Positions 24,910-39,252 of a stretch of 64,000 nt of DNA are shown here, piece by piece. How positions within the stretch are numbered: position 1 is the first letter of the stretch; every line of letters begins with the position of its first letter. The stretch is from Flavobacteriia bacterium. GTDB lineage: Bacteria > Bacteroidota > Bacteroidia > Flavobacteriales_D > Crocinitomicaceae. The position numbers and the translations under genes were made by a program. Location of the stretch: NCBI GenBank assembly GCA_947490145.1, contig CANLGD010000003.1, forward strand, positions 1 to 64,000, written 5' to 3'. Under the pieces are notes generated by a model. It made no database searches and had not been told where the DNA came from. It worked only from the letters and a program-made list of their open reading frames with translations.

Positions 24910-25167
24910 ATGGCAAGTAAAAGAAAATTCAAAAGAGAACTAAATTATATGGTTTTTGACGTTATCGAAGAATGTTTTAGCGTACAACTTTACGATGAGA
25001 AAAAAACAGAAGTTACAAATCAATTAATTGACGAAGTAATTGAATTTAGAAATAAAATGGCTGCTAAAGTTCATGCGTCAAAATCTAAAAAAGATTTTAC
25101 TGCTTTAAATATAGAAGTAGAAGATGCAGCTGTTGATTTTATCCATAAAATTAATGGTTTACACTAA
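24910..25167 (+). CDS. Conserved hypothetical protein (85 aa)
   Basis: Intact ORF followed by a strong terminator. Confidence 0.6.
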   Translation: MASKRKFKRELNYMVFDVIEECFSVQLYDEKKTEVTNQLIDEVIEFRNKMAAKVHASKSKKDFTALNIEVEDAAVDFIHKINGLH

Positions 25168-25196
25168 AATACATATTTAGCAAAATAAATATTTTT

Positions 25197-25230
25197 AAAA
25201 AACGGGTTGAATTTCAATCCGTTTTTTTTA
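25197..25230 (+). terminator. Rho-independent terminator
   Basis: AAAACGGGTTGAATTTCAATCCGTTTTTTTT. Confidence 0.8.
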
Positions 25231-25267
25231 TTTTAGCACTCTTAAATTCAAAAACTAACGTTATCAT

Positions 25268-26659
25268 ATGATCCAAAAATATTACAAATCAATAATTATT
25301 GCTTTAGGTTTCATTATTTTTGGATCAATTATTTTATCAACCGGCGGAAAATCGCTTTTTTGGAACGCAATTTCAATGGCTGGTTTAATGATTTATTTCT
25401 GGATTTTTGAAGTTATTCCAATTTATTTAACGGCACTTTTTCCAATCATTTTAGCTGCTCCACTGGGTTTACTAGATGTTGATGGAAAAGTAGATTCAAA
25501 TATCTTAGCAAAATCTTATGGAAATAATATGATTTTTATTTTTCTAGGTGGATTTATGCTTGCTTTAGCTTTAGAAAAATGGAATATTCACTTACAGATT
25601 GCTAGGGCAATTTTAAGAATTGTGGGAAATACTAAATCCAAAATTATTCTTGGTTTTCTTTTAAGCACTGGTTTATTGAGCATGTGGGTTTCAAATACTG
25701 CAACTGCTTTGATGCTTTTACCAATGGCTTTAGCCGTAATTAAATCTTTGCCTAGTGAGGAACAAAACTCTCGTTTCTCTTTATTCCTTTTATTATCAAT
25801 CGCTTACGGTTCAAGTATTGGGGGAATTGGAACAATAGTTGGCTCTCCGCCAAATCTCCAAATGGCATCCATTTTATCAAATCAATTTAAGATCGAAGTG
25901 GATTTCATACAGTGGTTTATTATTGGATTTCCCCTCTGCATATTGATGTTAAGCGCATGCTATTTGTTTTTTTATATCGCCTTAGGGAGAGAGAGAAATA
26001 AAAAGATCGATTCATTTTCGATGGAAAAAGAGCCTTGGACAAAAACACAATTTAAAGTTTTAGCAGTATTTTTAGTTTTTGTAATTCTATGGTCTTTCAA
26101 AGATTTAATTGCTTTAGCAGGAATAACTTACAGCGATGAAAGTGTAGCAATTTTTGGAACAGTTTTACTCTTTTTAATTCCTGTTGACAGAACAAAAAAT
26201 TTAATTGAATGGTCTGACACTTCAAAATTACCGTGGGGAATTTTATTATTATTTGGCGGAGGATTAGCGATGGCAGACGCTTTAGCAAAAGGTGGTGTTA
26301 TAAAATGGCTATCAGAATCTTTTGTTGATTTAAATAATTTTCCTTACTATTTAATTTTATTAATTTTAATTGCAAGTGCAGTTTTTGCAACGGAAGTAAT
26401 CTCTAATTTAGCATTGGTTACAATTTTAATTCCAATTATTGGTGCTTTTGCAAACGAATATGGACATCCGATCATACAACTTTCTTTTGCCATAACTTTT
26501 GGAGCAAGTTTGGCATTTATGCTTCCAATTGGAACACCACCAAATGCAATTGCCTTTTCTTCAGGACACATTAAGTTTAATCAAATGGCAAAAGTTGGCT
26601 TTATTTTAAATATTATTAGTATCACCTTAATCTTTTTAATATCATATTTTTTCTTGTAA
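25268..26659 (+). CDS. SLC13/DASS family sodium-coupled anion transporter
   Basis: GGIGTIVGSPPNLQMA; MLPIGTPPNAIAFSSGHI. Confidence 0.88.
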   Translation: MIQKYYKSIIIALGFIIFGSIILSTGGKSLFWNAISMAGLMIYFWIFEVIPIYLTALFPIILAAPLGLLDVDGKVDSNILAKSYGNNMIFIFLGGFMLALALEKWNIHLQIARAILRIVGNTKSKIILGFLLSTGLLSMWVSNTATALMLLPMALAVIKSLPSEEQNSRFSLFLLLSIAYGSSIGGIGTIVGSPPNLQMASILSNQFKIEVDFIQWFIIGFPLCILMLSACYLFFYIALGRERNKKIDSFSMEKEPWTKTQFKVLAVFLVFVILWSFKDLIALAGITYSDESVAIFGTVLLFLIPVDRTKNLIEWSDTSKLPWGILLLFGGGLAMADALAKGGVIKWLSESFVDLNNFPYYLILLILIASAVFATEVISNLALVTILIPIIGAFANEYGHPIIQLSFAITFGASLAFMLPIGTPPNAIAFSSGHIKFNQMAKVGFILNIISITLIFLISYFFL

Positions 26660-26792
26660 AATGAAGATCAAAATATTAAAAGATTAATTTTCTTCTAAAA
26701 TTTCTATTTTTAATCAAAAAACATATTAATTCGGCTAAAACTACTATCTTTATGCCGTTCTTCAGATAAAATTAAACAAAAAAATATAATAT

Positions 26793-29840: not shown

Positions 29841-30147
29841 ATAAAAAAATACTTTTTATATAGTTATCTTTACTTCATATTGCTTTCTCTCAATTGGAAC
29901 ATCTAGACAGAATTTATTAAAGATAAATATAATCACCCAGGGGAATCCAGATTTTTCTTGGCTTGCTTTCTTTTTTTTTTGCACTTATAAAGTAGGAATT
30001 AGATTAATGGTAAGTTGTAATGAGAAAATTTAAAATTTTAACATATTAGTAAAAATTGTTGAATATTTTAATTTCACTTAGTTAAATTCAGATAATGTTC
30101 TATTTTTGTAAGACTTGAAGAAATAAATCTTACATAAAATTGAAAAA

Positions 30148-31062
30148 ATGAACGAGAAAACGGAAGAAATAATTGGTCGTATAAAAGAAAAGTATAAAGC
30201 GATAGATCAAAATCCCGAGGTACATTTAGAAGGTCTAGTTTGGGCAAAACCAATAACTTATTGGGATTACATTTTACCTGACGCCTTACTAAATCTTCAA
30301 GTTCAAAGAACAACAGAACCTGACGAAATGGTTTTCGTGATGTATCACCAAATCAATGAGTTACTTTTCAAAATGATTTTATGGGAAATAAATCAAGTAA
30401 GTGATTCAGAAGAAATTTCAGCATCGTTATTTACTGAAAAATTAAGAAGAATTAGCCGTTATTTCGACATGCTTTCCTCCTCTTTTGACATTATGGGAGA
30501 AGGAATGGCCAAAGAACAATATATGAATTTTAGAAATACTTTGACACCAGCAAGTGGTTTTCAAAGTGCACAATATAGATTAATTGAATTTTCTTCAACG
30601 GAATTAATCAATTTGATTGATTATCGCTTTAGAGCAACAATTGACAGGAATACGCCCTATGAACATGCTTTTGAACATTTATATTGGCAAGCGGCAGGAA
30701 AAAATCATGAAACAGGCAAAAAAAATACGATGTTGGTTTTCTTTGAGGAAAAATACAAAGCTGATTTTTTATTGAAGATGCAAAAATACAATACAACAAA
30801 TTTGTGGACTAAATTCAAACAATTGCCTGAAGACGTGAAAAATGATGCAGAATTAATCAAAGCAATGCGTCATTATGATTATACTGTAAACGTAAAATGG
30901 GTAATGGCACATTACGAAGCAGCCGGAAAATATTTAGGTAAATCAGAAGCAACAGGTGGAAGTGATTGGAGAAAATACATGCACCCAAAATACCAAAGAA
31001 GAATTTTCTTTCCAGAATTATGGTCAAAGGAAGAATTGGAAAATTGGGGAAATGACGTTTGA
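30148..31062 (+). CDS. kynA: Tryptophan 2,3-dioxygenase family protein
   Basis: MYHQINELLFKMILWEI; LTPASGFQSAQYRLIEF; ATGGSDWRKYMHPKYQRRIFFPELW. Confidence 0.93.
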   Translation: MNEKTEEIIGRIKEKYKAIDQNPEVHLEGLVWAKPITYWDYILPDALLNLQVQRTTEPDEMVFVMYHQINELLFKMILWEINQVSDSEEISASLFTEKLRRISRYFDMLSSSFDIMGEGMAKEQYMNFRNTLTPASGFQSAQYRLIEFSSTELINLIDYRFRATIDRNTPYEHAFEHLYWQAAGKNHETGKKNTMLVFFEEKYKADFLLKMQKYNTTNLWTKFKQLPEDVKNDAELIKAMRHYDYTVNVKWVMAHYEAAGKYLGKSEATGGSDWRKYMHPKYQRRIFFPELWSKEELENWGNDV

Positions 31063-31165
31063 TTTACAATTAATTAAGTGTTAAAAATCAATTTGGTTAT
31101 TAACAATATTTTAAATTAACATAAATTTATGTAACTTAGCGCTTAATTTGACGTTTAAAAAACAA

Positions 31166-32260
31166 ATGAAGTTACTTTTAAATATATTATTCTTTTCTGT
31201 TTCCTTGAGTTTTCTGGCTCAACAGGATAGTTTACTTTTTGAACGCGAGCAGCAGTTGAAAGTATATTTAGATAAATTAAGATCTTCAAAAAACAACGAG
31301 GAAAAAAATAATGCTAACAAAATATTTAAAAACTATTTATCTGAAACCCTTTTAATTAGAGGTGTTTTAGATTACCCTTTTGCCTCTTTAAAAACACTTG
31401 GAACAATCAAAAGTCCGGATAATTCTTTTCGCTTATTCAACTGGAATGTGGAGCAAGACGATCGATCAAATCAATATTTTTGTTACATTTTAAGATTTGA
31501 TGAAAAGAAAAAAGAATGGATTACAATTGAACTAATTGACAATTCTTCCGCTTTAACAAAAAAACCAGATGATTTTTTAGATGAAAAAAACTGGTACGGA
31601 GCATTGTATTACAAAATAATTCCAGTAGAAAAATCTAACAAAACAATTTACACAATTTTGGGTTGGGATGGTAATAATCCGATGAGTAACATTAAATTGA
31701 TTGATGTATTGTCGTTTAATGGATCACATGCAAAATTTGGAAGCCCAATTTTTAAAATGGCTGATAAAACCTATAAACGATTGTTTTTTGAACACTCAAA
31801 CAAAGCCTTCATGTCCTTAAATTATGATGAAGCACGTCAAAGAATTATTTATGACCATCTTTCTCCAGAAACTCCAAGCATGGAAGGTTTTTATGAATAT
31901 TATGTGCCAGATTTATCTTACGACGAATTGAAATTCATCAATAACAAGTGGATAATTCAAGAAAATGTAGTGAGTGTAAATAAAAAAGGCTCAAATTCCT
32001 ACACTTTAGAATACATCAATAAAAAGACAAATGAGCTTGAAAAAGCTAACGTAAGAAATAATTGGGTTGATCCAACGGATCCAAGTTCTCCAAATGGAGG
32101 AAATATTCATGTTGCTCAGTTACCTGAAGATCAGATAGGAAGAACAAAAAATTCTGACTCTAAAATTGTAACTGGTTCTCCAAAAATTTCTAAAAGACAC
32201 AAAAAGAAAAATGAGTTTTCAATGAATCCTTTTATGAAAACTAGAAAAAATAGAAATTGA
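31166..32260 (+). CDS. Hypothetical secreted protein
   Basis: Signal peptide MKLLLNILFFSVSLSFLAQQ; ORF-track start 31148 is TTG, ATG at 31166 preferred. Confidence 0.65.
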   Translation: MKLLLNILFFSVSLSFLAQQDSLLFEREQQLKVYLDKLRSSKNNEEKNNANKIFKNYLSETLLIRGVLDYPFASLKTLGTIKSPDNSFRLFNWNVEQDDRSNQYFCYILRFDEKKKEWITIELIDNSSALTKKPDDFLDEKNWYGALYYKIIPVEKSNKTIYTILGWDGNNPMSNIKLIDVLSFNGSHAKFGSPIFKMADKTYKRLFFEHSNKAFMSLNYDEARQRIIYDHLSPETPSMEGFYEYYVPDLSYDELKFINNKWIIQENVVSVNKKGSNSYTLEYINKKTNELEKANVRNNWVDPTDPSSPNGGNIHVAQLPEDQIGRTKNSDSKIVTGSPKISKRHKKKNEFSMNPFMKTRKNRN

Positions 32261-32892
32261 ATATTTAAGTAGTAAACTGATTAAAGTTTGTCAATTTGGG
32301 AAACTTTTTTTTATCCCTATTGAATTTTTAAATGCAAATCAGCTTAAACTTTTAGGTCTCTTATAAATATTTGCTGTTAATCAAATTTTAGGTATAGATT
32401 TATACATAGAAGATGAGTATTTTATTTAACATTTAACTTAGTTTGATACTTGGCGTGGAAATTAGTAAAAACATTAAATTTGCTATCTAAAAGAACATAA
32501 ATCCATATTTTTTTTTCATTTTTTTAGTTTAACCATTTTATTGGGTAGGTTGGTTTTATTCATTAAAAGTACATGCAAAAAAAAAGCTAAAAAACTAATT
32601 TCTATTCTTTTACTGCTGATATAATCACGGAAAATACCTTTAAGGTCAAAAAAATGATGATTATTACAAAAGACTGATTTTTTAAACGCACTCTGATAAA
32701 AGTATTGTTTAAAAGCTTAAATACTTAATGGTAGGTGGATTGAGTTATGCAAGTAAAAAAAGCTCATGAATTTGAAAATATTTTATCCTATAAAGTGAGT
32801 CATCCTTTTAAACAAAATACTATTGATAATCAAAACATTCTTTTTGGTTCAACAAAAAATCAGACTAATATAATATATATTATGAGCTATTT

Positions 32893-34950
32893 CTAATTAA
32901 AAGTAATTTTTTTGATTTTATAAAAAGCATGCATCAAAAAGAAATGTGGAAAACTAATACATGAAATAAAAATGAAAAAAAATGAAATTAAACCTTCAAA
33001 ATAACTAAATTGATTTCCAAAAATTACGATTAAGAAAAAAATAATTAATGAGCCGAGAATATAAAATCGCCCTCTCTTATATAATTGCATAGAATTCATA
33101 TTCAATCCAATTTTCAAATGTCGCCACGCATTTGCACTATGTTGAAAGATAAAATAAAAACCAAAAGCCATTATTAATGGCACTTTTAAACCTATTATCA
33201 ATACAAAAAGTAAGCCTAAGAATGAATTTCTTTTAGACAGAGCATTTTGAAATAAAATGTATGTCAAAGATAATACGGGTATTACCAGGACCAGGGATAA
33301 CAAACTAAGATTGTAGTCCGAAATGGCCGCTTTTGGCAATCCTATTAAATTGAAAACAATCTCTTGTGATTCATTTAAATGAGAAAAAATTATAAATATC
33401 AGAATGCACAAACCCAATAGAAATGCCTTTAAATGTATAATTAAAGATAATAATTTTTCACCTGATTCTATCAATTCCGATTCACCAAAATGGAAGGATG
33501 AATAGAAAACAAAAACGAGCAAGGCAATTGACGGAAAAAACTGCCAAAAAGCATAATATAAGCCAACTATTAACAAATATTTCAGTAAAAAAACCAACAA
33601 ACGACTCGTATTATTTTTTAAAATCACATGATCTAGCGCGCCATGAGGAATACCAATTAAAAAAAGACCAATAGTTAAGGGTAAATAACTAAAATATTCA
33701 GCAAATTTAAGGTTATAGCTAGCTAATAATAAATACATAGCCACGATTAAAAAAACGCAAATGTAACGTAGCAAGTTTTCCATTTTCAAATACAAATAAA
33801 GAGCCTTTAAAAATGCAATTATAGGCAATGAGGCAAAAATTTTCAGTTCTTGAAAAAAAGATGATTTTTCATCCAAAAATGAAAAAACAGAAAGTATAGA
33901 ATGCTTCTCGAATAGTCTCGTAAATATCAATCTTCCCTTGGAAGGCCAATACAACAATATAAGCAGCAATAATTTATCATAAAATTTGAACCGGTTTTTA
34001 AAATCAAGTCCTATTTTATTAAAATGATCTAGCTTATTTAGTTCAATTTGCTCACTTACAAGTTGCGCAAATTGATGCATTCTCTTAAAACCGTAACCAG
34101 TGCTTGGCTTTATTAAATTTGCACTAACTCCAGTATTTAAAATACCTTTACTTTCATTCGGTGGATTAATATTAGTAGTCATAGGAATGCATCCCAACTC
34201 ATCAGCTAAAATTTCAAATTTCCCAAAATCTCTGTTTATAAAACTATTTAAAACATCCGCTGCATAATTTTTATTTATCTTTTCTTTACCAAAACGTGTC
34301 AGTTCTACCAAGGCCTCATTTGAAGAAAATGGAATAACATATACAAACTGTGTATAGTTATCTTGTTCAACATTAAAATTCATCATTTCAAAAGCATTTT
34401 TTTGAAATACATCCTTCTCGCATTTAATATGAAAACCATAAAAAGATTGATGAAGGTATATTTGCTTTTTATCAATTAAACCAAAGGAAGGAGGACGACT
34501 ATCAAAAACATAATTTGCTTTATAAGTCTCGCTTAAACTTTCAATAATGCAAATTTCATTTTCATAAACGACTTTCTTTACATCGTTTCTGAAAATAACA
34601 ATTTTTTCTTGATTTAGCTTTTGTAATGTAAATTTGTATAAATCTAAACTACGAATATAATGATATGGCTGGGAGTCAATATTTTGAGATACAGATTGAT
34701 TTACTTGAATTTCATTAAATTTATGGGAGATTATTAAAGATAGATCTTCAACTATTGCTTCATTTAATCCAGACCAAAAACAAAATGACTAAAATTTAAT
34801 ATTCTACCTAGAACTAAAAATTGAGATTCTAGAAAAGTAATGAAAATCAAAACATATACCTCTTATGAAAAAATGGAAGGTATTTCAGCAAATTTAAAGA
34901 AATTACTTGTAAATCAAATACTATGAATTTCTGGGCATTATCCAAAACTT
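32893..34950 (-). pseudogene. Lycopene beta-cyclase (CrtY)-Blh beta-carotene 15,15'-dioxygenase fusion with a degraded N-terminus
   Basis: Open frame runs from 34788 (after in-frame TAG 34789..34791) to 32893: SFCFWSGLNEAIVED...PYHYIRSLDLYKFTLQKL...NYVFDSRPPSFG (CrtY), then GIPHGALDH, FHFGE, HSANAWRHL, SFPHFFLMHAFY (Brp/Blh). Upstream decayed FIVFDLQVISLNLLKYLPFF resembles the CrtY FAD loop but contains stops. ORF track shows only 32893..34386. Confidence 0.8.
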
Positions 34951-34966
34951 TTATTTAGTGACTTTC

Positions 34967-36232
34967 CTATTTTAGTTCCTCAAACTTAGCTTTCATGGTT
35001 GGATTGTTATACGTCAATTTTTTAATGGTTAAATCTTCTGTTTTTTCATTTGCAAGGCGAAGGTTATTTTCTGACGACAATAATGCTTGCTTGGTTTTTT
35101 CCAATTCTTTGATTGTTTTATCAATTCCATTTATTGCTTCCGTAAATTTACGACTTGCCAAATCATAATTTCGTGCAAAACCATCTTTAAAGGAGTTCAT
35201 TTTCTCTTCAAAATTGGTAATATCAATATTTTGACTTTTAACTAAAGCAAGTTCTGCCTTGTATTTCATAGAAGTCATTGCAGCATTGCGTAGTAAAGTA
35301 ATAATTGCAATGAAAAATTGTGGTCGAACAACATACATTTTGTTGAACCTATATGAAACATCAACAATTCCTGTGTTATAGAACTCATTTTCTGCTTCCA
35401 GCAAGGAGACCAAAACGGCAAATTCACATTTTTTTTCATTTCGGTCTTTGTCAAGTTCCTTTAAAAAATCTTCATTTTTCTTTTTTGTTGCAGTTTCGTC
35501 ACCTTCATTTTTCATTTCAAACATGATGGAGATAATTTCGTTTCCCAATTCATCTAGTTCTCTATAAATAAAATCTCCTTTGCTACCCGTTTTTGCATCG
35601 TTGTCTTTTTCAAAATAGGCATTTTGAAAGGCTGTTGCACGCAATTTGTTAAATTCTGTTTCACAATGTTGTTCAAGTGTTTCGCCCAACATTTTGGTAG
35701 AAAGTTTCAACTTCATATCTTTGACACGTGAAATTTCATCGTCTTTGTATTTGATGATGGCATCTTTATTTTGCAATTCAGTGGAAAATTGTTGTTTCAA
35801 AGAACTTTCCAAGTTTTGTTTTTCTAATTCTTTGGTTTTTAAATCATTTGCTAAATTGTCACGTTCTTTCTCTATTTTTTGAACAGCTTCCGTTACAGCG
35901 AGTTTTTTCTCTACTTCAATATTGTCAATTTTTGCTATTAACTTCGTTATCTCAGATTCTTTATTGTTTAATTTTTCAGATAAAATCAATTCACTTTGCG
36001 CCTTCAAAGCTGCAAATTCTTGATCTTTTTTTGCAAGTTGGTCCTGCAACGAATTTCGAACATTTGCTTCTGCTAATTTTATTGCACTTTCCTTTTCATT
36101 GTCAGCAAGTTTTAGTCGGTTTTGAATTTCTTCTTCAAATTGGTGATCACGCACTTGTTTCAAGATAGCATCAAAACTTGCCTCATCTACTTTGAAGGCC
36201 TTCTTACAATTTGGGCAAATAATTTCATTCAT
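34967..36232 (-). CDS. DUF2130 domain-containing protein
   Basis: [20 protein letters not shown]; coiled coil; [64 protein letters not shown]. Confidence 0.9.
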
Positions 36233-36563
36233 CTTTTTTTGTTTTGTTGGTCGTTGTTAAAAATAAGTTGATTTTTGTTGAAGGATTTCGATTATTTCCA
36301 CTATTCCGAATTTCTATTTTTCTGAAAACAACTTTATAATCAATTAAGGCACTATTTTTTTATCTAACACAAATATAAACAAATAATGTAAACTAACAAA
36401 ATTCAATCAAGACAATGATGTTAAACATTTCAAAAGTTTTGATACATATTTTTATCAAAGTAAAATTTAATTTATCAACTAATTGACAGGTGAAATGCTT
36501 GTTAGGTTTTTTTAGATAAATTTGATTTAGGATTTTTGCTAACAAAACTTTTTTACCTTTAAC

Positions 36564-37697
36564 TTGTTTAAATATCAAATAATTTTAATGTCAAAATCAG
36601 GATATATATTTACTCCCTTTCATGAAGAAAAGAAAGGTAATTTCGATCGACTTTTTGAAATTTTTAGCGAGATAATACCACATACTTCCGGAGATGTATA
36701 CGAAGCCTTAGATTGGATGAAAACATTGGACGACGAATATAAACTTACCACTAAAGAATATACTCTAGACGATTTTTTAGAAGAATTAAAAGAACGTGGA
36801 TATCTAAAAGAAGAAATTAAACCTGATGGGAAAGGATCTTTGGCGATTACCGAAAAAACAGAACGTGTTATTAGAAAAAATGCCTTAGACCAAATCTTTG
36901 GAAAAATTAAAAAAAGCGGCCAAGGAAATCACAGATCAAAAAAAAGTGGTCAAGGTGATGAAATGACGGGTGAATTTCGTGATTTTCAATTTGGAGATTC
37001 ATTGGAAAATATCTCAATTACTGAAAGTTTAAAAAATGCACAAATAAACAACGGAATTGCTGATTTTCGTCTGACGGAGCAAGATTTAGTTGTTGAAGAC
37101 ACGCATCACAAATCTCAAATGAGTACCGTTTTGATGATTGATATTAGTCACAGTATGATTTTATATGGTGAAGATCGCATCACACCAGCAAAAAAAGTGG
37201 CAATGGCTTTGGCCGAATTAATCACGACTTGTTATCCAAAAGACACCTTGGATATTATTGTCTTTGGAAACGATGCTTGGCCTATAAAAATAAAGGATTT
37301 ACCTTATTTACAAGTTGGACCGTATCACACAAATACAGTTGCAGGACTCGAACTTGCTCTAGATATTTTGCGCAGAAAAAGAAATACAAATAAGCAAATT
37401 TTCATGATAACAGATGGTAAACCCAGTTGTTTGAGAATGCCTGATGGCCAATATTACAAAAACAGCAATGGCTTGGATCAATTTATTGTAGAAAAATGTT
37501 ACAATATGGCTGCAAAATCTCGGAAAATACACATTCCAATTACCACATTTATGATTGCGCAAGATCCTTATTTGCAAGCATTTATTGAAGAGTTTACTAA
37601 ATCAAATAAAGGAAAGGCATTTTACACAGGTTTAAAAGGATTGGGAGAAATGATTTTCCATGACTACGAAACAAATAGGAAAAAACGAATTAATTAA
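36564..37697 (+). CDS. VWA domain-containing protein
   Basis: VLMIDISHSMILYGEDRITPAKKVAMALAEL MIDAS motif; MITDGKPSC. True start possibly ATG 36588 (MSKSGYIFTPF). Confidence 0.88.
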   Translation: MFKYQIILMSKSGYIFTPFHEEKKGNFDRLFEIFSEIIPHTSGDVYEALDWMKTLDDEYKLTTKEYTLDDFLEELKERGYLKEEIKPDGKGSLAITEKTERVIRKNALDQIFGKIKKSGQGNHRSKKSGQGDEMTGEFRDFQFGDSLENISITESLKNAQINNGIADFRLTEQDLVVEDTHHKSQMSTVLMIDISHSMILYGEDRITPAKKVAMALAELITTCYPKDTLDIIVFGNDAWPIKIKDLPYLQVGPYHTNTVAGLELALDILRRKRNTNKQIFMITDGKPSCLRMPDGQYYKNSNGLDQFIVEKCYNMAAKSRKIHIPITTFMIAQDPYLQAFIEEFTKSNKGKAFYTGLKGLGEMIFHDYETNRKKRIN

Positions 37698-37702
37698 TCA
37701 AA

Positions 37703-39163
37703 ATGGACACAAAAATAAACACACTTGGAGCCTTAAAAGCTGCTGGATATATTTCGAAAAGTATCAAAGATGAGTTAAGAGATAACTTAATTTCTTCTCT
37801 GAAACATGGCAAAAAAACATTTCCAGGAATGCATGGATATGAGCAAACCGTGATTCCTCAGTTGGAACGAGCGATCCTTTCAAAGCACAACATCAATTTA
37901 TTGGGACTTCGTGGACAAGGAAAAACGAGAATTGCTCGATTAATGATCAATTTATTGGACGAATTTATTCCTTTTGTTACTGGAAGTGAAATGAATGATG
38001 ATCCTTTGAATCCAATCAGTCGTTTTGCACGAGATTTAGTTGCTGAAAAAGGCGACTCCGCCCCTATTTCATGGCTTCACAGAGACGAGCGCTTTTTTGA
38101 AAAACTCGCAACTCCAGATGTTACAATTGCAGATTTAATTGGAGATATTGATCCAATAAAAGCTGCGAATTTAAAATTATCTTACGCTGACGAACGTGTT
38201 TTACATTTTGGAATGATTCCAAGAGCCAATCGTTGTATATTCGTAATCAATGAATTACCAGATTTACAAGCAAGAATTCAGGTTGCTTTGTTCAATATTT
38301 TAGAAGAAGGCGATATCCAAATTCGTGGTTTTAAATTAAGAATGCCTTTGGATTTACAATTTGTTTTTACTGCCAATCCAGAAGATTATACTAACAGAGG
38401 AAGCATCGTTACTCCATTGAAAGACAGAATTGGTTCTCAAATTTTGACCCATTATTCTGCTGACATAAAAACCGCTAAAATTATCACTTCGCAAGAAGCT
38501 GGAAAATTGGAGAATCGACTGTGTGAAGTTTATGTTCCTGAATTGGCAAAAGATATTGTGGAACAAATAGCTTTTGAAGCTAGAAAAAGTGAATTTATTG
38601 ACCACAAAAGTGGAGTCAGCGCTCGAATGAGCATCACTGCTTATGAAAATTTAATCAGCACAGCAGAAAGAAGAGCAATTTTGAACAATGAAGTAGAAAC
38701 TAGCGTCCGTTTCAGTGATTTAATGGGTATGATTCCTTCAATAACAGGAAAAGTTGAATTGGTTTATGAAGGTGAGCAAGAAGGAACGGATTTCGTAGCA
38801 AATCGCTTGATTTCGGAAGCAACGAAAACTTTATTTTTGACTTATTTTCCTAAAATTGAGAAATTCAAAAAGGAAAATCAAGAAACGGCTTACGATGGAA
38901 TTGTTAAGTGGTTTTTAGAAGCAAATTCTTTTGAACTTTCTGATGAAGCAAAAAATGTAGAATATGAAGCAGCTTTGAAAGCAATTGAACCTTTGGATGT
39001 TTTACTTCAAAAATACCAACCAAAAGTTTCTCCGCAAGATTCATTTTTCTTAAAAGAATTTATTTTATGGTCTTTGGTTGAATTGAAACAATTGACTAAA
39101 AAAAGATCTCAAAATGGAATTGTTTTTAATGATGTTTACGATAGTTACATAAAAGGTTTATAA
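37703..39163 (+). CDS. MoxR/Mg-chelatase-like AAA+ ATPase
   Basis: LLGLRGQGKTRIARLM Walker A; CIFVINELPDL Walker B-like; VFTANPEDYTNRGSIVTPLKDRIGS. Confidence 0.88.
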   Translation: MDTKINTLGALKAAGYISKSIKDELRDNLISSLKHGKKTFPGMHGYEQTVIPQLERAILSKHNINLLGLRGQGKTRIARLMINLLDEFIPFVTGSEMNDDPLNPISRFARDLVAEKGDSAPISWLHRDERFFEKLATPDVTIADLIGDIDPIKAANLKLSYADERVLHFGMIPRANRCIFVINELPDLQARIQVALFNILEEGDIQIRGFKLRMPLDLQFVFTANPEDYTNRGSIVTPLKDRIGSQILTHYSADIKTAKIITSQEAGKLENRLCEVYVPELAKDIVEQIAFEARKSEFIDHKSGVSARMSITAYENLISTAERRAILNNEVETSVRFSDLMGMIPSITGKVELVYEGEQEGTDFVANRLISEATKTLFLTYFPKIEKFKKENQETAYDGIVKWFLEANSFELSDEAKNVEYEAALKAIEPLDVLLQKYQPKVSPQDSFFLKEFILWSLVELKQLTKKRSQNGIVFNDVYDSYIKGL

Positions 39164-39252
39164 GAACAGTATTTTAGCGTAGTAAAAAAAAATATTTTTT
39201 TGTTAAATTTTTTTTGTTAAAATTTTTTTATTTTATTTGTAAAAAAATAAAT

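What the first reader, a model, noticed from the sequence alone, without database searches (positions are those of the whole stretch)
32893..34950. Lycopene cyclase-Blh fusion gene caught in decay (retinal pathway loss?)
Seen: one minus-strand frame, open for about 632 codons (34788 to 32893), carries CrtY-like motifs (FCFW, YxYIRSLDLYKF, FDSRPP) and then a complete Brp/Blh signature set (GIPHGALDH, FHFGE, HSANAWRHL, FPHFFLMHAFY). The frame is blocked by a TAG directly before SFCFW. Upstream (about 34940..34790) a different frame reads FIVFDLQVISLNLLKYLPFF, which looks like an eroded FAD-binding start, followed by several stops. Established: CrtY makes beta-carotene and Blh cleaves it to retinal, the rhodopsin chromophore. 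Inference: a fused bifunctional gene has lost its cyclase N-terminus. The Blh half could still be translated from an internal start such as the tandem ATG at 34386/34383. No rhodopsin or other crt gene is visible in the window.
Basis: partly seen in the sequence, partly recalled or inferred. Interest (0 to 1): 0.75.

Follow-up and report, generated by a model that had tools for sequence, protein, structure and literature searches.

The report
Freshly truncated lycopene cyclase–retinal enzyme gene
A bacterial gene that normally makes beta-carotene and splits it into retinal for light-driven pumps has abruptly lost its front end here and the genome shows no rhodopsin; it is an ordinary recent relic rather than a slowly rotting gene, and the bacterium keeps another cyclase gene and the other carotenoid genes.

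Summary
The fusion is real: one minus-strand frame (34788..32893, 631 codons) holds a CrtY-type lycopene cyclase lacking its first ~50 residues (the FAD-binding GxGAS segment) joined to a complete Brp/Blh beta-carotene dioxygenase. CrtY-Blh fusions are common in aquatic Bacteroidota: 79 of 80 fetched relatives have the front end (the other is cut by a contig edge) and 52 carry a proteorhodopsin gene just upstream. The window gene is the only internally truncated one. All four Blh histidine motifs are intact, and codon models show no relaxation. Simulations say the frame has drifted neutrally by less than ~0.02-0.03 substitutions/site, whereas an eroded N-terminus would stay recognisable to ~0.3. 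So the front was cut off abruptly and recently (or by mis-assembly), not worn down. The genome shows no rhodopsin, but keeps crtB, crtI, crtD and a crtYcd-type cyclase beside cruF-like and crtZ-like genes; carotenoid synthesis is not lost. Best reading: a fresh 5'-truncated relic of a known rhodopsin cassette. Translation of Blh from an internal start cannot be excluded.

The parts
32893..34788 (-). open frame: 5'-truncated crtY-blh fusion remnant (631 codons and stop), no standard start codon before 34386
33799..34788 (-). CrtY-type lycopene cyclase part, lacking about the first 50 residues (GxGAS FAD-binding segment); FDSRP, ELTRFG and PSTGYGF motifs intact
   Evidence: Pfam PF05834 from profile position 54; alignments A1/A2
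32923..33669 (-). complete Brp/Blh beta-carotene 15,15'-dioxygenase domain
   Evidence: PF15461 2-266/267, TIGR03753 above cut-off
33628..33654 (-). GIPHGALDH motif, histidines conserved
   Evidence: residues 379-387 of the frame
33481..33495 (-). FHFGE motif
   Evidence: residues 432-436
33118..33141 (-). HSANAWRH motif
   Evidence: residues 550-557
32929..32949 (-). PHFFLMH motif
   Evidence: residues 614-620
34381..34386 (-). tandem ATG (starting at 34386 and 34383): first standard start in the frame, would give 497 aa without the cyclase's front part
34787..34791 (-). breakpoint: in-frame TAG (34791-34789); homology to intact relatives ends at 34787
34789..34966 (-). 178 nt between the remnant and DUF2130; not recognisable as a CrtY N-terminus in any frame
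34967..36232 (-). DUF2130 gene upstream on the same strand; no match in the four held genomes of the genus

Best explanation
A bifunctional crtY-blh gene of the kind that often sits behind a proteorhodopsin gene was cut abruptly and recently by a rearrangement with its break at about 34788. The break removed the cyclase's FAD-binding N-terminus, the start codon and, if the cassette was complete, the rhodopsin gene, and left the remnant behind a DUF2130 gene. Without the FAD-binding segment the cyclase half should be dead. The Blh half is complete but has lost the gene's own start. The remnant is a young pseudogene that has not had time to collect stops. Loss of the CrtY half would be tolerable because the genome has a separate CrtYcd-type cyclase with crtB, crtI and a crtZ-like gene. 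Whether the cut happened in this lineage or on arrival by horizontal transfer is not resolved. Shown: the fusion, the truncation, the sharp edge, the open and conserved remainder, the rhodopsin-linked intact relatives, no rhodopsin match, the other crt genes. Inferred: the mechanism of the cut, its recency, the lack of function.
For: Domains. Intact relatives: 79 of 80 with the N-terminus, 52 with rhodopsin upstream, 70-190 nt away in all but one. Sharp end of DNA similarity at 34787. Upstream DNA at chance level. Frame intactness bounds neutral drift to about 0.02-0.03 substitutions/site, while an eroded N-terminus stays detectable to about 0.3. The 134 codons before the first start are also open, bounding untranslated time to about 0.05-0.1. 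Only 3 departures at 138 sites invariant in 12 relatives, within the range that intact relatives show. No relaxation in a RELAX-style codon model (K=1.0 for all, 1.3 for the CrtY part, 0.84 and not significant for the Blh part). No rhodopsin in the genome, with working positive control. Alternative cyclase.
Against: No reads are available, so a mis-join in the assembly at 34788 would look the same. No genome was found that shows the uncut locus or the empty site in the same context; the nearest sibling (G105, about 91% DNA identity) has contig ends exactly here. dS is saturated to the nearest relatives, so the codon model cannot see recent relaxation. About 6% of the genome is missing and could hold a rhodopsin.
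Confidence: 0.62

Rival explanations
1. Assembly artefact: contig C3 joins DUF2130-side DNA to a crtY-blh fragment that in the cell is still whole, so no gene is truncated.
For: Sharp homology edge with perfectly open, fully conserved remainder. The nearest sibling's contigs break on both sides of this region, so it may be hard to assemble.
Against: The flanks 25164-26679, 30029-31381 and 36508-39189 match sibling G105 at about 91%, so the contig belongs to the genome. The missing N-terminus and rhodopsin are not found on any other contig of the genome. No long repeat lies at the junction within 31000-37000.
Confidence: 0.15
2. Gene fission in progress: Blh (with or without a cyclase stump) is still translated from an internal start (34386/34383 or the ATG at about 33783), and beta-carotene comes from the CrtYcd enzyme.
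For: Blh domain complete with all motifs. CrtYcd (TIGR03462/PF18916) with crtZ-like and cruF-like genes, plus crtI and crtB, present. No stop in the frame.
Against: No rhodopsin and no heliorhodopsin hit (no positive control) to use retinal. Promoter-like sites no more frequent than in shuffles. The first 134 codons, which have no standard start, are as clean as the rest, so the open frame is explained by recency alone. CrtD and CruF-like genes suggest monocyclic pigments, so beta-carotene supply is uncertain.
Confidence: 0.13
3. Incomplete arrival (a variant of the best explanation, overlapping with it): only the 3' part of a rhodopsin-crtY-blh cassette was acquired horizontally and it never worked in this lineage.
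For: No cassette in the four held genomes of the genus. The intact relatives examined carry the cassette in different gene neighbourhoods. DUF2130 next door is also missing from the siblings.
Against: One of the four siblings is fragmented exactly here. No integrase or mobile-element genes were seen among the annotated neighbours. Loss after complete acquisition explains the same data.
Confidence: 0.25
4. Gradual decay of the N-terminus by point mutations and frameshifts.
For: The length between the DUF2130 stop and the remnant (178 nt) is about that of a CrtY N-terminus; a TAG lies directly before the conserved [ST][FY]CFW.
Against: Upstream DNA at chance similarity to 8 intact N-termini. An eroded N-terminus would be recognisable at the small neutral distance allowed by the intact remainder.
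Confidence: 0.04

Closest known systems
CrtY-Blh fusion genes behind proteorhodopsin in aquatic Bacteroidota (e.g. L051, L052, L055/G216)
   Same: Same two domains in the same order, 55-64% amino-acid identity, all histidine motifs of Blh.
   Different: Relatives have the N-terminal GxGAS segment and a start codon, and most have rhodopsin just upstream; the window copy has none of these.
Stand-alone Brp/Blh beta-carotene 15,15'-dioxygenase (TIGR03753/PF15461)
   Same: Complete domain scoring above the curated cut-off.
   Different: Here it is the C-terminal part of a truncated fusion without a known start.
Loss of proteorhodopsin plus blh in marine Polaribacter (Kumagai et al. 2018, PMC5932025)
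   Same: Rhodopsin and blh inferred lost as a neighbouring pair within a PR-bearing group.
   Different: There the genes are absent altogether; here a remnant of a fused crtY-blh is still present.
CrtI-CrtB-CrtYcd-Blh fusion of Thecamonas trahens (PMC10016063)
   Same: A lycopene cyclase domain fused in front of Blh.
   Different: Eukaryotic, four-domain, with a CrtYcd-type and not a CrtY-type cyclase.

Membership tests
CrtY-type lycopene cyclase (PF05834) | profile match above the gathering score | tested here: met
   110 bits against 23.4
CrtY-type lycopene cyclase (PF05834) | N-terminal dinucleotide (FAD) binding motif GxGxx | tested here: not met
   match starts at profile position 54; motif not recognisable in any frame upstream
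CrtY-type lycopene cyclase (PF05834) | equivalog score for lycopene beta-cyclase (TIGR01789) | tested here: not met
   45 of 215 bits; but an intact relative (L052) also reaches only 52 bits
Brp/Blh beta-carotene 15,15'-dioxygenase (TIGR03753) | score above curated cut-off over the whole profile | tested here: met
   132 bits against 95
Brp/Blh beta-carotene 15,15'-dioxygenase (TIGR03753) | conserved histidine motifs | tested here: met
   GIPHGALDH, FHFGE, HSANAWRH, PHFFLMH intact
Brp/Blh beta-carotene 15,15'-dioxygenase (TIGR03753) | cleaves beta-carotene to retinal | not testable with these tools
   needs expression in a beta-carotene-producing laboratory E. coli strain
Rhodopsin photosystem cassette (rhodopsin + retinal enzyme) | rhodopsin gene adjacent or in the genome | tested here: not met
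   no PF01036 hit in the 94%-complete genome; positive control
Pseudogene | disabling lesion | tested here: met
   loss of start codon and FAD-binding segment
Pseudogene | relaxed selection on the remainder | tested here: inconclusive
   no relaxation visible, but dS is saturated and the lesion may be recent

The most novel reading that the evidence does not exclude
The truncation is a working gene fission: the CrtYcd enzyme has taken over cyclisation, the CrtY half is being shed, and Blh is translated from an internal start to make retinal or another apocarotenoid in a bacterium without rhodopsin.
Probability: 0.08. Interest if true: 0.5.

Novelty: new member of a known kind. Interest (0 to 1): 0.25.

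Why it matters
It is a small, roughly dated snapshot of how a rhodopsin photosystem cassette is lost or fails to establish: the bound on neutral drift says the cut is very recent. It also shows that truncation need not end carotenoid synthesis, because a second, unrelated cyclase is present. The widespread CrtY-Blh fusion itself, apparently not discussed under that name in the open-access papers searched, may deserve a short note.

Tried and rejected
A single-protein scan of genome contigs found nothing; the alignment-based scan worked. The eroded N-terminus reading was tested two ways and rejected. Sibling G105 as an 'empty site' comparison: inconclusive, because contigs C37 and C191 end on either side of the region. 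DUF2130 and the VWA gene as syntenic anchors: DUF2130 has no match in the siblings and the VWA gene only in G105. A de novo Met at the Blh start was considered and dropped: the Met at about 33783 is shared with intact relative L053. Relaxed selection was sought with a home-made RELAX-style codon model; dS saturation limits it. Heliorhodopsin as another retinal user: no hit, but no positive control either. Structure prediction of the remnant (mean pLDDT 75) matches FAD-dependent geranylgeranyl-reductase-like folds and adds little; no solved relative by sequence.

Full report
Observation. The minus-strand frame 34788..32893 is open for 631 codons; by base composition the chance of such a run is about 1e-23. 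It carries PF05834 Lycopene_cycl from profile position 54 to 378 and PF15461 BCD over its whole length, each at about 1e-31, and passes the curated cut-off of TIGR03753 (Brp/Blh). A TAG (34791-34789) stands directly before SFCFW, and the first ATG/GTG/TTG in frame is the tandem ATG at 34386/34383. So the fusion and the missing cyclase front are confirmed.

Where it lies. The window is the start of contig C3 of a 3.08-Mb, 127-contig, 93.6%-complete genome. The window therefore most likely comes from a Crocinitomicaceae-like member of the Flavobacteriales. That assignment is an inference; many public labels of these MAGs are plainly unreliable. The contig is native: flanking stretches match the sibling genome G105 at about 91%.

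Relatives. Of 240 genomes of the family, 88 match the protein, many with the full fusion, and 87 have a rhodopsin match. The alignment-based scan of GTDB genomes gave 247 confirmed relatives, of which 80 were kept. Among those 80, 79 have the cyclase N-terminal segment and one is cut by its contig end; 52 have a rhodopsin gene upstream, 70-190 nt away in all but one case. The nearest intact relatives are L052 (64%), L051 (62%) and L053 (60%). L051 and L052 have rhodopsin directly upstream; in L053 no rhodopsin is adjacent, so adjacency in the ancestor of the window copy is likely but not certain. The cassettes examined sit in different gene neighbourhoods, which fits movement as a unit.

How the front was lost. 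DNA similarity to L051/L052 (about 70%) ends at 34787. The bases between there and the DUF2130 stop (34967) were compared with intact N-termini by frameshift-tolerant protein alignment (seven references) and by DNA alignment (eight references), each against dinucleotide shuffles. No reference scored convincingly beyond chance; the best case was reached by 3 of 60 shuffles for one of the protein references. Simulated neutral drift breaks the 631-codon frame quickly: the chance of no stop is 0.075 at 0.02 substitutions/site and 0.03 at 0.03, and lower with indels. A drifting N-terminus stays recognisable in 88% of simulations at 0.3. The 134 codons upstream of the first possible start are also open, which limits the time without translation even if the internal start is used. 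The two clocks disagree with slow erosion, so the front was removed in one step and recently, or the assembly is wrong at the junction.

State of the remainder. Against 12 relatives, the window protein departs at 3 of 138 otherwise invariant sites, within the range of intact genes. A RELAX-style codon model gives K = 1.01 (all), 1.30 (CrtY part, p = 0.03, towards stronger constraint) and 0.84 (Blh part, p = 0.2) for the window branch. Branch lengths are saturated for synonymous change, so this speaks for long past constraint, not for present function. The Blh motifs GIPHGALDH, FHFGE, HSANAWRH and PHFFLMH are intact.

Pathway context. No rhodopsin (PF01036) is found in the genome or in its four held genus-mates, and no heliorhodopsin (no positive control). 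The genome has crtI (NF058655) with crtB and idi on C20, crtD (NF042421) on C33, and on C75 a PF04240 CruF-like gene, a small CrtZ-like gene (named by eye from its histidine motifs; no Pfam or NCBIfam hit) and a CrtYcd-type cyclase with both domains. The cruF-like/crtZ-like/crtYcd group is shared with G105, and the CrtYcd gene also with G102 and G104. From general knowledge of Bacteroidetes pigments, this set suggests saproxanthin- or myxol-like monocyclic carotenoids; whether free beta-carotene is made is not known. So carotenoid synthesis can continue without CrtY, and what is missing is the rhodopsin branch.

Loss or failed gain. None of the four genus-mates has the fusion or rhodopsin, although G105 is fragmented exactly at this place: C37 ends at window 31381, and C191 joins at 36508 after 436 nt of unrelated, repeat-containing DNA. 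The neighbour DUF2130 also has no match in the siblings. Both a loss after gain and an incomplete gain fit.

Literature. Loss of proteorhodopsin together with blh is described in marine Flavobacteriia (PMC5932025). A CrtYcd cyclase domain fused to Blh within a four-domain protein is described in Thecamonas (PMC10016063). A search for 'crtY-blh' returned no open-access paper, and other searches did not surface a description of the bacterial CrtY-Blh fusion; subscription papers were not searched.

Verdict. A probably real, recent, abrupt 5' truncation of a known kind of gene, most likely a young pseudogene. Mis-assembly and internal translation of Blh remain open, at lower probability.

Noticed in passing
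L026:1-436 (G105:C191 1-436): Upstream of the VWA gene, where the window carries DUF2130 and the crtY-blh remnant, sibling G105 has unrelated DNA with repeated motifs like TTTACCGTCCATTTATTACAA, resembling transposon ends; the motif is absent from the window.
   Followed up: partly
L137:5400-7323 (G000:C75): A cruF-like gene, a small CrtZ-like hydroxylase and a two-domain CrtYcd cyclase lie together; the group is conserved in sibling G105. The CrtZ-like protein matches no Pfam or NCBIfam model.
   Followed up: partly
window:34967-36232: The DUF2130 gene beside the remnant has no match in the four held genomes of the genus, so the region 31381-36508 may be a variable island.
   Followed up: partly
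window:30148-31059: A tryptophan 2,3-dioxygenase relative scoring 94 bits in Pfam but far below the NCBIfam equivalog cut-off (104 of 391 bits), so perhaps a divergent subfamily.
   Followed up: no
L006:1501-3345, L018:1501-3315 and other places: Some other family members (G219, G087, G178, G172, G218, G177, G183) have one or two in-frame stops flagged in the CrtY-Blh match; most may be alignments running past the natural stop, but they were not checked one by one.
   Followed up: no
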